Shown here in pieces: positions 41,147-45,781 of a stretch of 64,000 nt of DNA (positions are counted from its first letter, which is position 1; each line of letters starts with the position of its first letter). The notes below the pieces were generated by a model. The model saw only the letters and a list, made by a program, of their open reading frames with translations, had not been told where the DNA came from and ran no database searches. The stretch is taken from contig NZ_AP018338.1 in NCBI RefSeq assembly GCF_002356415.1, positions 1,178,001 through 1,242,000 on the forward strand, written 5' to 3'. Made by a program: the position numbers and the translations under genes. This stretch comes from Streptococcus oralis subsp. tigurinus (GTDB lineage Bacteria; Bacillota; Bacilli; Lactobacillales; Streptococcaceae).

Positions 41147-41299
41147 TACTTTTCGAAAATCTCTTCAAACCACGTCAGCTTCGCCTTGCCGTTAGTATGG
41201 GTTACTGACTTCGTCAGCTCTATCTGCAACCTCAAAGCTGTGCTTTGAGCAGTCTTTGGGTCGCTTCCTAGTTTGCTCTTTGATTTTCATTGAGTATAA
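41146..41299 (+). repeat. BOX element (boxA-boxB-boxC type)
   Basis: About 154 bases matching the pneumococcal BOX element from memory. BoxA-like start: ACTTTTCGAAAATCTCTTC then CTTCGCCTTGCCGT. BoxB-like middle: GTTACTGACTTCGTCAG and AACCTCAAAGCTGTGCTTTG. BoxC-like end: CTAGTTTGCTCTTTGATTTT and CATTGAGTATAA. It begins at the stop codon of the immunity-like gene. BOX elements are non-autonomous repeats typical of S. pneumoniae and close relatives. Confidence 0.88.
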
Positions 41300-41322
41300 A
41301 AACTAGAATTTCCTGTTTTCTA

Positions 41323-41351
41323 TTGACAAAATTTCCTCAAAAGTATAGGAT
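41323..41351 (+). promoter_or_regulatory. Promoter of the ABC-F leader
   Basis: Consensus TTGACA at 41323-41328, 17-base spacer, TAGGAT at 41346-41351. Start near 41358 gives a leader of about 313 bases to the ABC-F start codon. Confidence 0.78.
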
Positions 41352-41383
41352 AGAGGGTACTAATACTCGGAGGTAAGGGAGAC

Positions 41384-41395
41384 ATGAACAACTAA
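41384..41395 (+). CDS. Three-codon upstream ORF (Met-Asn-Asn) in the ABC-F leader
   Basis: ATG AAC AAC TAA with a strong ribosome site (GGAGGTAAGGGAG) directly before it and about 26 bases after the predicted transcription start. The stop codon lies one base before the first arm of the downstream terminator hairpin. Tiny upstream ORFs of this kind act as drug sensors in ribosome-mediated attenuation of ABC-F genes. That it is translated is an inference from the strong site and position. Confidence 0.6.
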   Translation: MNN

Positions 41396-41396
41396 G

Positions 41397-41438
41397 TCTA
41401 TCAAATAAAGAATCTTTATTTAGTAGATCTTGTTTTTG
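41397..41438 (+). terminator. Leader terminator 1, just after the upstream ORF
   Basis: Stem AAATAAAG/CTTTATTT (41403-41421), flanked by TCTA/TAGA, then a T-rich tract TCTTGTTTTTG. A ribosome held at the upstream ORF stop would cover the 5' arm and prevent folding. Confidence 0.6.
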
Positions 41439-41460
41439 TCTCTTTTTGTGTGCTCTTTTT

Positions 41461-41479
41461 ATACTAGATTTTCTAGTAT
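41461..41479 (+). other. Perfect hairpin in the ABC-F leader
   Basis: ATACTAGA-TTT-TCTAGTAT, an eight-base-pair perfect stem in the middle of the leader. The bases after it are not T-rich. It may act as a pause or an alternative pairing partner. Confidence 0.5.
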
Positions 41480-41487
41480 CTTGTCCC

Positions 41488-41520
41488 CATTGAAAATCAA
41501 AAAACTAGAAAGCTAACCGT
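41488..41520 (-). repeat. Degenerate BOX-like fragment, reverse orientation
   Basis: CATTGAAAATCAAA, then AACTAG and AAAGCTAACCG on the plus strand correspond to the reversed end of boxC with a short deletion. It lies inside the ABC-F leader, so a relic repeat may contribute leader sequence. Confidence 0.45.
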
Positions 41521-41605
41521 CTGCTCCTTTTGGGTTGGGGTAGGCAGCTCCAAGCTAGTTTGACGAGCTTTTTAACGAGGAAAATAGAGTTTTGACAGTG
41601 ACTTT

Positions 41606-41637
41606 GAGCTCTACTAGATAAAGTAGAGCTTTTTGTT
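41606..41637 (+). terminator. Leader terminator 2, directly before the ABC-F gene
   Basis: Stem AGCTCTAC/GTAGAGCT with loop TAGATAAA, followed by TTTTGTT, 33 bases before the ABC-F start. Upstream TAGAG (41585-41589) could pair with CTCTA (41609-41613) as an antiterminator. A strong terminator in front of its own gene indicates attenuation. Confidence 0.8.
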
Positions 41638-41670
41638 ATGCACTATCGACATTCTAGAAAGGGCAACAAT

Positions 41671-43197
41671 ATGATAAAAATCAATCATCTATCCATCACT
41701 CAAAACAAAGATCTACGAGATCTTGTATCTGACTTAAGCATGACTATCCAAGACGGGGAAAAGGTTGCTATTATTGGCGAAGAAGGAAATGGCAAATCAA
41801 CCTTGCTACGAGCTTTAATGGGGGAAAAATTGACTGATTTCACTATCAAGGGAGACATCCAATCTGATCTTCAATCACTGGCCTACATTCCTCAAAAACT
41901 CCCTGAAATCCTGAAAAATAGGACTCTACACGACTACTTCTTTTTGGATTCTACTGAATTAGACTACAGCATTCTTTATCGTTTGGCGGAGGAGTTGCAC
42001 TTTGATAGCGACCGTTTTGCTAGCGACCAAGAAATTGGCAGCCTATCAGGGGGAGAAGCTTTGAAAATTCAGCTCATTCACGAGTTAGCAAAACCTTTTG
42101 AGATTCTTTTTTTAGATGAACCTTCAAATGACCTTGACCTTGAGACGGTTGATTGGCTAAAAAGGCAGATTCGAAAGATTAGGCAAACTGTTATTTTCAT
42201 TTCCCATGATGAAGACTTTCTTTCTCAAACGGCAGATACTATTGTCCACTTGCGACTGGTCAAGCATCGGAAAGAAGCGGAAACGCTAGTCGAGCATTTA
42301 GACTATGATCGCTATAGTGAGCAGAGAAAGGCTAATTTTGCAAGACAAAGCCAGCAAGCTGCTAACGACCAGAGAGCCTATGACAAAACCATGGAAAAAC
42401 ATCGCCGCGTCAAGCAAAATGTAGAAACTGCACTTCGAGCTACCAAAGACAGTACTGCCGGTCGCCTATTGGCTAAAAAGATGAAAACTGTTCTCTCTCA
42501 AGAAAAACGCTTTGAAAAGGAAGCTCAGTCCATGACCCAAATGCCACTTGAAGAGGAGCAAATCCAACTTTTCTTCTCAGACATCCAACCATTACCGGCT
42601 TCTAAAGTCTTAATTCAACTTGAAAAAGAAAATTTGTCCATTGGCGAGCGTATTTTAGCTCAGGAGTTACGACTAACGGTCCGTGGCCAAGATAAAATCG
42701 GTATCATCGGGCCAAATGGTGCTGGAAAATCAACTCTGTTAGCCAAGTTGCAGCAACTACTAAGCGCCAAAAGAGAGATTTCCCTTGGTTATATGCCACA
42801 AGATTACCACAAAAAACTGCAATTGGATTTATCTCCAGTAGCCTACCTCAGCCACACTGGACAAAAAGAAGAACTACAGAAAATCCAATCTCACCTAGCC
42901 AGTCTCAATTTCAGCTATCCAGAGATGCACCACCAAATCCGCTCCCTATCTGGCGGGCAACAAGGTAAACTCCTAATTTTGGATTTAGTGTTGCGCAAAC
43001 CAAACTTTCTCCTTCTGGATGAGCCTACACGAAACTTTTCTCCAACTTCCCAACCCGAAATCAGAAAACTCTTTGCATCTTATCCCGGCGGTCTGATCAC
43101 TGTTTCTCATGACAGACGTTTTCTAAAAGAGGTCTGTAGGGCCATCTATCGTTTGACAGAACATGGTTTGGAGGTAGTTAATTTAGACGATTTATAA
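41671..43197 (+). CDS. ABC-F family ATPase, probable ribosome-protection factor
   Basis: A 508-residue soluble protein with two ABC domains and no membrane segments. Domain 1: Walker A GEEGNGKST near residue 35, signature LSGGEALKI, Walker B LFLDEPSNDLD. The charged, helical interdomain linker spans about residues 195-310 (SEQRKANFARQSQQAANDQR). Domain 2: Walker A GPNGAGKST, signature LSGGQQGKL, then an unusual LLDEPTRNFSPTSQPE instead of the usual LDEPTNxLD. ABC-F proteins of this length often dislodge antibiotics from ribosomes. I start at ATG 41671 (AAAGGG before it). The long attenuator-like leader fits a drug-inducible resistance factor; this is inferred. Confidence 0.88.
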   Translation: MIKINHLSITQNKDLRDLVSDLSMTIQDGEKVAIIGEEGNGKSTLLRALMGEKLTDFTIKGDIQSDLQSLAYIPQKLPEILKNRTLHDYFFLDSTELDYSILYRLAEELHFDSDRFASDQEIGSLSGGEALKIQLIHELAKPFEILFLDEPSNDLDLETVDWLKRQIRKIRQTVIFISHDEDFLSQTADTIVHLRLVKHRKEAETLVEHLDYDRYSEQRKANFARQSQQAANDQRAYDKTMEKHRRVKQNVETALRATKDSTAGRLLAKKMKTVLSQEKRFEKEAQSMTQMPLEEEQIQLFFSDIQPLPASKVLIQLEKENLSIGERILAQELRLTVRGQDKIGIIGPNGAGKSTLLAKLQQLLSAKREISLGYMPQDYHKKLQLDLSPVAYLSHTGQKEELQKIQSHLASLNFSYPEMHHQIRSLSGGQQGKLLILDLVLRKPNFLLLDEPTRNFSPTSQPEIRKLFASYPGGLITVSHDRRFLKEVCRAIYRLTEHGLEVVNLDDL

Positions 43198-45630: not shown

Positions 45631-45781
45631 AGCAAAGGTTTTTAATGTCATCCTGTGAGGTGACGAAGGCGCAGATTTATATAAATTTTTAAAAGATAGC
45701 TATTTTTTAAAAAGTCTTACTCTGAGGGCCTATTGCTGTAAAATAATGGGCTCTTTTTTGGTGCCCAAAAGTGAGGTTTTT
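45631..45781 (+). ncRNA. PyrR-dependent attenuator leader of the uracil permease gene
   Basis: PyrR-binding hairpin GTCA-TCCTGTGAGG-TGAC at 45647-45664 matches the consensus loop exactly. An A/T-rich middle follows, then the terminator stem with GAG/CTC and CCTATT/AATGGG arms and six T (45724-45759), ending before the ribosome site. It has the same order as the pyrR leader. Confidence 0.9.
45724..45759 (+). terminator. Attenuator terminator upstream of the uracil permease gene
   Basis: Stem GAG-(GG bulge)-CCTATT paired with AATGGG-CTC, followed by TTTTTT, 22 bases before the start codon. Confidence 0.8.

What the first reader, a model, noticed from the sequence alone, without database searches (positions are those of the whole stretch)
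41323..41671. Attenuator-like leader with a Met-Asn-Asn upstream ORF controls an ABC-F gene
Seen: consensus promoter; strong ribosome site; three-codon ORF ATG AAC AAC TAA (41384-41395); a hairpin with T-tract starting one base after its stop; a middle perfect hairpin; and a second clear intrinsic terminator ending 33 bases before the ABC-F ATG. Known: ribosome-mediated attenuation in response to translation inhibitors is described for ABC-F genes such as vmlR and lmo0919. Inference: a drug-stalled ribosome on MNN-stop covers the 5' arm of terminator 1, and further refolding (TAGAG at 41585 with CTCTA at 41609) opens terminator 2. A three-codon sensor would be among the shortest.
Basis: partly seen in the sequence, partly recalled or inferred. 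Interest (0 to 1): 0.72.

Follow-up and report, generated by a model that had tools for sequence, protein, structure and literature searches.

The report
Three-codon ribosome-sensing switch before ABC-F gene
A streptococcal gene for a ribosome-helper protein is preceded by an RNA switch that appears to read whether a ribosome has stalled on a three-codon mini-gene; the known pneumococcal 'small RNA of unknown function' at this place looks like the switch's OFF product.

Summary
The leader is real and fits a ribosome-mediated transcription attenuator. Bases 41359-41457 match Rfam SpF43_sRNA, a 99-nt pneumococcal RNA confirmed by Northern blot; a second published RNA, srf-19 (178 nt), matches the length from start site to terminator 2. 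Both look like terminated leaders of this gene. The three-codon uORF with its ribosome site is in 104 of 107 unique Streptococcus upstream regions (34 of 1070 shuffles have any such ORF). A ribosome on the uORF would block hairpin 1 and free this strand. The layout resembles Bacillus vmlR (uORF MIN), so this is a new member of a known kind; three-codon sensors have precedent. Induction, inducer and protein function are untested. Against: at equilibrium terminator 2 mostly survives even with the ribosome in place, and the vmlR pause motif is not enriched.

The parts
41323..41351 (+). Promoter: -35 TTGACA, 17-nt spacer, -10 TAGGAT
   Evidence: 10 of 12 consensus matches; the SpF43 5' end (41359) lies 8 nt downstream.
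41359..41457 (+). SpF43 RNA (Rfam RF02436): transcription start to tail of hairpin 1; read here as the terminated leader
   Evidence: 117.3 bits, gathering 70; F43 is 99 nt between SP1281 and SP1282, Northern-confirmed (PMC3395615).
41369..41373 (+). Shine-Dalgarno site of the uORF
   Evidence: Sequence; conserved.
41384..41395 (+). Three-codon uORF ATG AAC AAC TAA (Met-Asn-Asn)
41375..41446 (+). Basal stem P0 of SL-1 (41375-41391 with 41430-41446): SD-start region of the uORF paired with sequence just after hairpin 1
   Evidence: MFE; Rfam consensus structure; swap test 7 of 20000.
41396..41428 (+). Hairpin 1 (T1), arms 41396-41410 and 41414-41428
   Evidence: I1; swap test 11 of 20000.
41414..41427 (+). 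Antiterminator strand 1 (= 3' arm of hairpin 1)
   Evidence: Pairs 41610-41623; (I4).
41610..41623 (+). Antiterminator strand 2 (= 5' arm and loop of terminator 2)
   Evidence: As for strand 1.
41606..41636 (+). Terminator 2 (T2): arms 41606-41615 and 41622-41631, T tract to about 41636
   Evidence: in four compact leaders it ends 176-178 nt after the start site, and srf-19 is 178 nt.
41461..41479 (+). Middle perfect hairpin, lineage-specific
   Evidence: absent from the compact leaders printed.
41489..41580 (+). Degenerate BOX-like insert in the spacer (boundaries approximate; the name BOX is recalled)
   Evidence: I2, I5.
41671..43197 (+). ABC-F protein, 508 aa (SP_1282 / SPD_1137 counterpart); the ATG at 41638 opens a 519-aa reading without an SD

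Best explanation
The leader is a ribosome-mediated transcription attenuator, of the kind known from vmlR, controlling an ABC-F gene that most Streptococcus genomes carry. OFF: a ribosome finishes the three codons and leaves, or none is there; SL-1 (P0 plus hairpin 1) folds, hides the 3' arm of hairpin 1, and polymerase stops at the tail of SL-1 (SpF43, 99 nt in pneumococcus) or at terminator 2 (srf-19, 178 nt). ON: a ribosome stalled on start or stop covers the 5' strands of P0 and hairpin 1; the freed 3' arm captures the 5' arm and loop of terminator 2 as they emerge, and polymerase reads into the ABC-F gene. Shown here by computation: anatomy, conservation, covariation, folding. From papers: the two short RNAs. 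Inferred: that they are terminated leaders, that the ribosome is the trigger, that peptidyl-transferase drugs of the pleuromutilin-lincosamide-streptogramin A (PLSA) type stall it, and that the protein then relieves the stall.
For: uORF: 104 of 107 unique Streptococcus 450-nt upstreams, the hit being the leader uORF in each, against 34 of 1070 shuffles with any three-codon TAA ORF. Codon 2 varies (N, K, I, R, D, L); length and TAA hold. Antiterminator swap test on 27 representatives: own -15.14, other -10.66 kcal/mol, 0 of 20000; 12-mers own 10.69, swapped 9.77, shuffled 9.22 pairs, 0 of 20000. An inverted-repeat search finds the same pair. The whole leader folds with SL-1 and T2 formed; without the uORF and the 5' arm of hairpin 1 the MFE is the antiterminator with T2 gone. 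With RNA ending at the T2 loop, antiterminator probability is >=0.5 in 5 of 27 free, 27 of 27 with a ribosome at AUG, 27 of 27 at stop. Published RNAs match T1 and T2 ends. vmlR-like leaders share uORF type and order of parts, and for B. subtilis vmlR uORF translation and lincomycin induction are reported.
Against: At equilibrium the T2 probability falls by more than 0.3 in only 8 of 27 (AUG) or 5 of 27 (stop) blocked leaders, so switching would need co-transcriptional timing. The decision-point measure has a high background: swapped T2 arms reach 0.5 in 63% and 45%, shuffled arms in 44% and 35% (n = 108 each); five representatives form the antiterminator without a ribosome. TTNTTT motif behind a hairpin in 3 of 27 against 6% of shuffles. 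T tract of 5 or more at the SL-1 base in only 3 of 27 (2 of 16 vmlR-like leaders), so termination at hairpin 1 is not general. I saw no induction data; the srf-19 changes I saw concern competence, blood and CSF, not drugs.
Confidence: 0.85

Rival explanations
1. SpF43/srf-19 is a trans-acting small RNA, and the ABC-F gene lies downstream by accident.
For: Catalogued as sRNA and as ncRNA of unknown function.
Against: The leader sits before this ABC-F gene in the 127 Streptococcus loci read and is still there where the gene is frameshifted or reduced to a relic (three genomes). Its 3' arm covaries with terminator 2 of the same transcript. srf-19 is placed in the 5' UTR of SPV_1137. The F43 deletion is not among the 8 attenuated of 15 tested.
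Confidence: 0.05
2. Constitutive gene: tandem terminators insulate the ABC-F gene and the three-codon ORF is chance or untranslated.
For: No expression data with drugs; consensus scans near expectation.
Against: uORF in 104 of 107 versus 3% of shuffles, promoter inside the unit, covarying mutually exclusive pairing.
Confidence: 0.05
3. Amino-acid attenuator reading asparagine supply.
For: Two Asn codons in the window; the last codon is Asn in 96 of 107 unique leaders.
Against: Codon 2 is Lys, Ile, Arg, Asp or Leu elsewhere and the last codon can be Lys, His or Ile; the gene is ABC-F.
Confidence: 0.03
4. The trigger is general slow initiation or termination (competence, cold, ppGpp, release-factor limits) rather than drugs.
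For: srf-19 follows a competence-like expression pattern and is listed as changed in blood or CSF; the last codon is conserved next to an invariant UAA.
Against: Characterised leaders with uORFs of this size answer PLSA drugs.
Confidence: 0.2

Closest known systems
Bacillus subtilis vmlR leader (uORF MIN; SL-1, AT, SL-3)
   Same: Three-codon uORF inside SL-1, SL-1 3' arm complementary to the terminator 5' arm, intrinsic terminator before an ABC-F gene (paper passages); in vmlR-like loci uORFs of the form M-x-N/H/I-TAA.
   Different: Different ABC-F subfamily and leader sequence; spacer of up to about 258 nt with BOX inserts; TTNTTT motif not enriched; a 99-nt RNA ending at SL-1 is known in pneumococcus.
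Clostridioides cplR leader (uORF MRI)
   Same: Three-codon uORF, ABC-F, transcription attenuation.
   Different: cplR adds translational attenuation by SD sequestration; not tested here.
Streptococcal msrD leader (MYLIFM)
   Same: Ribosome-mediated attenuation of a streptococcal ABC-F gene; the same leader ORF is present elsewhere in this genome.
   Different: Six codons; macrolide- and peptide-specific arrest at the stop codon.
Rfam SpF43_sRNA / D39V srf-19
   Same: Same RNA by covariance model and, for srf-19, by position and length.
   Different: Catalogued as an sRNA or ncRNA of unknown function, at most 'potentially an RNA switch'.

Membership tests
Ribosome-mediated transcription attenuator of ABC-F genes | Short uORF with its own ribosome site upstream of an ABC-F gene | tested here: met
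Ribosome-mediated transcription attenuator of ABC-F genes | Mutually exclusive terminator and antiterminator | tested here: met
   By covariation and folding.
Ribosome-mediated transcription attenuator of ABC-F genes | Anti-antiterminator (SL-1) overlapping the uORF so that a stalled ribosome opens it | tested here: met
   By folding only: (SL-1 base formed in 27 of 27 MFE folds); the equilibrium test is mostly negative for loss of T2.
Ribosome-mediated transcription attenuator of ABC-F genes | Inducer-dependent read-through requiring uORF translation | not testable with these tools
   Needs Term-seq, toeprints and reporters.
vmlR leader in the strict sense | NusG pause motif TTNTTT after a pause hairpin between SL-1 and the terminator | tested here: not met
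   3 of 27 representatives, shuffles 6%. Filed under the wider kind, not as a vmlR leader.
Rfam SpF43_sRNA RF02436 | Score above gathering threshold | tested here: met
   117.3 versus 70 bits.
Antibiotic-resistance ABC-F (NCBIfam NF000355) | Curated cut-off 380 bits | tested here: not met
   303.3 bits; not filed as a resistance protein.
Antibiotic-resistance ABC-F by fold | Closest fold among PLSA-type resistance ABC-Fs | tested here: inconclusive
Amino-acid attenuator (Asn) | Conserved run of codons for the sensed amino acid | tested here: not met
   Codon 2 varies freely.

The most novel reading that the evidence does not exclude
The M-x-N-UAA leaders of streptococcal ABC-F genes, the vmlR leaders of Bacillales and the four-codon MINR/MSNR leaders upstream of Clostridia relatives belong to one ancient RNA sensor class. 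The unpaired last codon next to an invariant UAA is the element read, so the switch senses arrest at Asn-stop (termination or pre-termination) as well as start-codon arrest, and in streptococci it also answers physiological ribosome stress such as competence.
Probability: 0.25. Interest if true: 0.72.

Novelty: new member of a known kind. Interest (0 to 1): 0.55.

Why it matters
It assigns a likely cis function to two catalogued pneumococcal RNAs of unknown function (SpF43, srf-19) and proposes what regulates an otherwise anonymous ABC-F gene found in 251 of 284 Streptococcus genomes. It provides natural variation of a very short sensor (18 peptide types) for asking what a tripeptide uORF can discriminate, and it warns that deleting such an 'sRNA' also deletes a gene's switch.

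Tried and rejected
NusG TTNTTT pause: not enriched. Hairpin 1 as a genus-wide terminator: rejected, T tract at the SL-1 base in 3 of 27. Equilibrium folding as a test of switching: mostly negative; the decision-point test that I ran next is positive but has a high background. Genome pattern counts: the backward control pattern also hits and hits in many genomes (not tallied), so 209 of 279 is only supportive. An alignment of seven leaders used uneven ranges and was not used. The terminator finder crashed on one leader and was rewritten; it still chose a wrong hairpin for L022, which I set by hand to the one found; for six representatives (L021, L073, L079, L151, L155, L160) its search stopped 300 nt after the uORF. 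In one search the uORF of L160 was picked by hand among candidates. In one search the best 12-mer in a few leaders lies away from hairpin 1. Rows dropped before the leader counts: L009, L023, L027, L030 (no ABC-F gene with enough upstream DNA in the locus); loci fetched later (L202-L211) were not added. SrpA/Vga(F) of S. suis as the same gene: a paper describes it in some strains only and the Vga(F) model scores 126.6 against 975, so no. None of my ten paper searches showed me a paper that describes this leader as an attenuator; I saw listings, abstracts' beginnings and passages only. Dar et al. 2016 is not held. Families not in the VIA-align list are not excluded.

Full report
What is there. 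The window is from a Streptococcus, by ABC-F identity of the mitis group: the nearest named loci are Streptococcus sp., S. oralis, S. mitis and S. pneumoniae contigs at 90-93%. Promoter, ribosome site, ATG-AAC-AAC-TAA, hairpin 1, middle hairpin and terminator 2 are present at the stated places. Rfam identifies 41359-41457 as SpF43_sRNA (117.3 bits, gathering 70), and its consensus structure is the fold found here. The 5' end of that RNA sits 8 nt after the -10 box.

Published RNAs. In PMC3395615 (passages seen) F43 is a 99-nt RNA between SP1281 and SP1282, Northern-confirmed; its deletion mutant was among fifteen tested but not among the eight attenuated. In PMC6212727 (passages) srf-19 is D39V 1170746-1170923, 178 nt, 'ncRNA of unknown function'. 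PMC9812572 (passages) places it in the 5' UTR of SPV_1137 and lists it as changed in blood or CSF conditions. PMC6560143 (passage) calls it 'potentially an RNA switch' behind an RpoD site, with a competence-like expression pattern. The listed SPD_1137 change H431Q (CAC>CAG) fits the 519-aa reading of this gene, where residue 431 is His, codon CAC (508-aa residue 420). Taking the second coordinate column as D39V (heading not seen), the gene would start at 1170927 and srf-19 would end 4 nt before it, which is where the T tract of terminator 2 lies. In four compact leaders the distance from start site to the end of that tract is 176, 177, 177 and 178 nt. I infer that F43 and srf-19 are products of termination at SL-1 and at terminator 2. 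D39 and TIGR4 DNA were not read here.

Conservation of the uORF. Of 284 Streptococcus genomes searched, 251 hold the ABC-F gene at E <= 1e-60. I read leaders from 127 loci (107 unique; not all 251 genomes; four loci dropped, see Tried and rejected). With a pattern limited to three or five codons, TAA and a GAGG-type ribosome site, 127 of 127 have it. With an unrestricted definition (ORFs of 2-8 codons, any stop, SD match of 5), 104 of 107 unique 450-nt upstreams have the three-codon uORF with TAA, against 34 of 1070 shuffles having any such ORF. The three misses are two S. suis leaders with five codons (MDNKK, MDNNK) and one uORF lying 651 nt upstream. Other short ORFs with an SD match occur in these regions too: 43 of other lengths up to 15 codons against 109 of three codons. 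Unique leaders encode MNN 62, MKN 17, LKN 6, MIN 4, MIH 4, MRN 2, and twelve other types once each. Codon 2 varies while frame, length and stop hold. The pattern GGAGGN3-12ATGNNNAAYTAA occurs in 209 of 279 genus genomes; it misses GTG/TTG starts and other last codons, some hits lie elsewhere, and the backward control pattern also hits in many genomes, so this count is only supportive. In two genomes with a frameshifted ABC-F gene and one with only a short relic of it the leader is still there; one further pattern hit was unrelated. Of 39 non-Streptococcus relatives, 3 have a three-codon ORF and 7 carry MINR or MSNR (L074, L099, L100, L102, L103, L104, L108); folding of seven such leaders shows a large SL-1 in them too (no shuffle control).

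Structure and mechanism. The antiterminator was found by eye and then tested without an alignment. I clustered leaders at 80% core identity (26 clusters, plus L013 = 27 representatives) and compared duplex energy of each leader's own parts with parts swapped between representatives. Antiterminator: own -15.14, other -10.66 kcal/mol, 0 of 20000 permutations as good. P0: -18.20 versus -16.61, 7 of 20000. Hairpin 1: -9.35 versus -7.79, 11 of 20000. A simpler count of pairs in 12-mers centred on the terminator loop gives 10.69 own, 9.77 swapped, 9.22 shuffled, 0 of 20000 permutations; pair types change in concert, for example TTTAG/CTAAA, TCAAG/CTTGA, CCAG/CTGG. An inverted-repeat search of the window lists 41414-41430 with 41607-41623 at 88% complementarity.

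In the window the whole leader folds with SL-1 and T2. Leaving out everything up to the 5' arm of hairpin 1 makes the minimum-energy fold the antiterminator. With a ribosome footprint imposed, equilibrium folding lowers T2 by more than 0.3 in only 8 (AUG) and 5 (stop) of 27. If the RNA is cut at the T2 loop, the moment of decision, the antiterminator reaches 0.5 in 5 of 27 free, 27 of 27 AUG-blocked and 27 of 27 stop-blocked leaders; swapped T2 arms reach this in 63% and 45% of 108, shuffled arms in 44% and 35% of 108. The switch is therefore kinetically plausible, not an equilibrium one, and the last measure alone would be weak.

Comparison with known systems, made last. PMC9226507 (passages) describes vmlR: uORF MIN in a bulge of SL-1, SL-1 as anti-antiterminator, antiterminator, terminator SL-3, induction by lincomycin requiring uORF initiation; MDN and MDK work, MRK less well. 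PMC10201436 (passages) lists MR[I/M], MK[L/Q] and MAGN; the word Streptococcus does not occur in its main text. I fetched 30 vmlR-like loci from unnamed Bacilli; in 29 a frame was found, and 18 of 29 show a three-codon M-x-x-TAA ORF with an SD match of 4 or more (MIN, MIH, MDN, MNN, MLN, MDF, MII, MDI), 5 show MK, the rest none by that rule (no shuffle control). The same order of parts was seen by eye in the seven leaders printed. A TTNTTT pause motif behind a hairpin is not enriched in the streptococcal leaders. A T tract of 5 or more at the base of SL-1 is found in 3 of 27 streptococcal representatives, the window among them, and in 2 of 16 vmlR-like leaders, so termination at SL-1 is a feature of some leaders, while a terminator 2 hairpin was found in all 27 representatives.

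Verdict. Real, widely conserved within Streptococcus, and best read as a ribosome-mediated attenuator resembling that of vmlR. It gives a likely cis role to SpF43 and srf-19. It is a new member of a known kind, with two features of its own: in the window's group SL-1 also seems to terminate, and the switch tolerates spacers from about 62 nt to about 258 nt, including BOX elements.

Noticed in passing
window 45645-45740: Rfam SpF44_sRNA lies directly before the permease-like ORF at 45746 and contains TCCTGTGAGG, which resembles the PyrR-binding loop as I recall it (Rfam PyrR does not reach its gathering score there); it may be a cis PyrR attenuator. The published F44 deletion was attenuated in mice, so a cis effect should be considered.
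   Followed up: partly
L079, L073, L151, L155, L160, L021, upstream of ABC-F: Between terminator 2 and the ABC-F gene some species carry a 46-50 codon, basic and His-rich ORF ending in GNR (for example ...YHNRGNR), probably co-regulated.
   Followed up: no
G000:C1:709382-710806 (L171): The same genome carries an ABC-F gene (534 bits, over the cut-off) preceded by the ORF encoding MYLIFM, the leader known from msrD: a second ribosome-controlled ABC-F. The gene upstream was not identified by a call.
   Followed up: partly
window 41147-41300 and 41489-41580; L007, L041, L044, L135: BOX-like repeats (name recalled) flank and invade the leader; long copies sit in the spacer between SL-1 and terminator 2 in several strains while both hairpins remain.
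   Followed up: partly
SP_1282 upstream region (not in window): PMC4243769 lists a SNP 61 bp upstream of SP_1282 between two variants of one isolate (passage); it lies within this leader, exact place depending on the annotated start.
   Followed up: no
L145, L076, L159 leaders: TTG-start uORFs (LKN, LNN) overlap an upstream two-codon GTG-CAT-TGA frame; vmlR-like leaders also have overlapping GTG frames.
   Followed up: no
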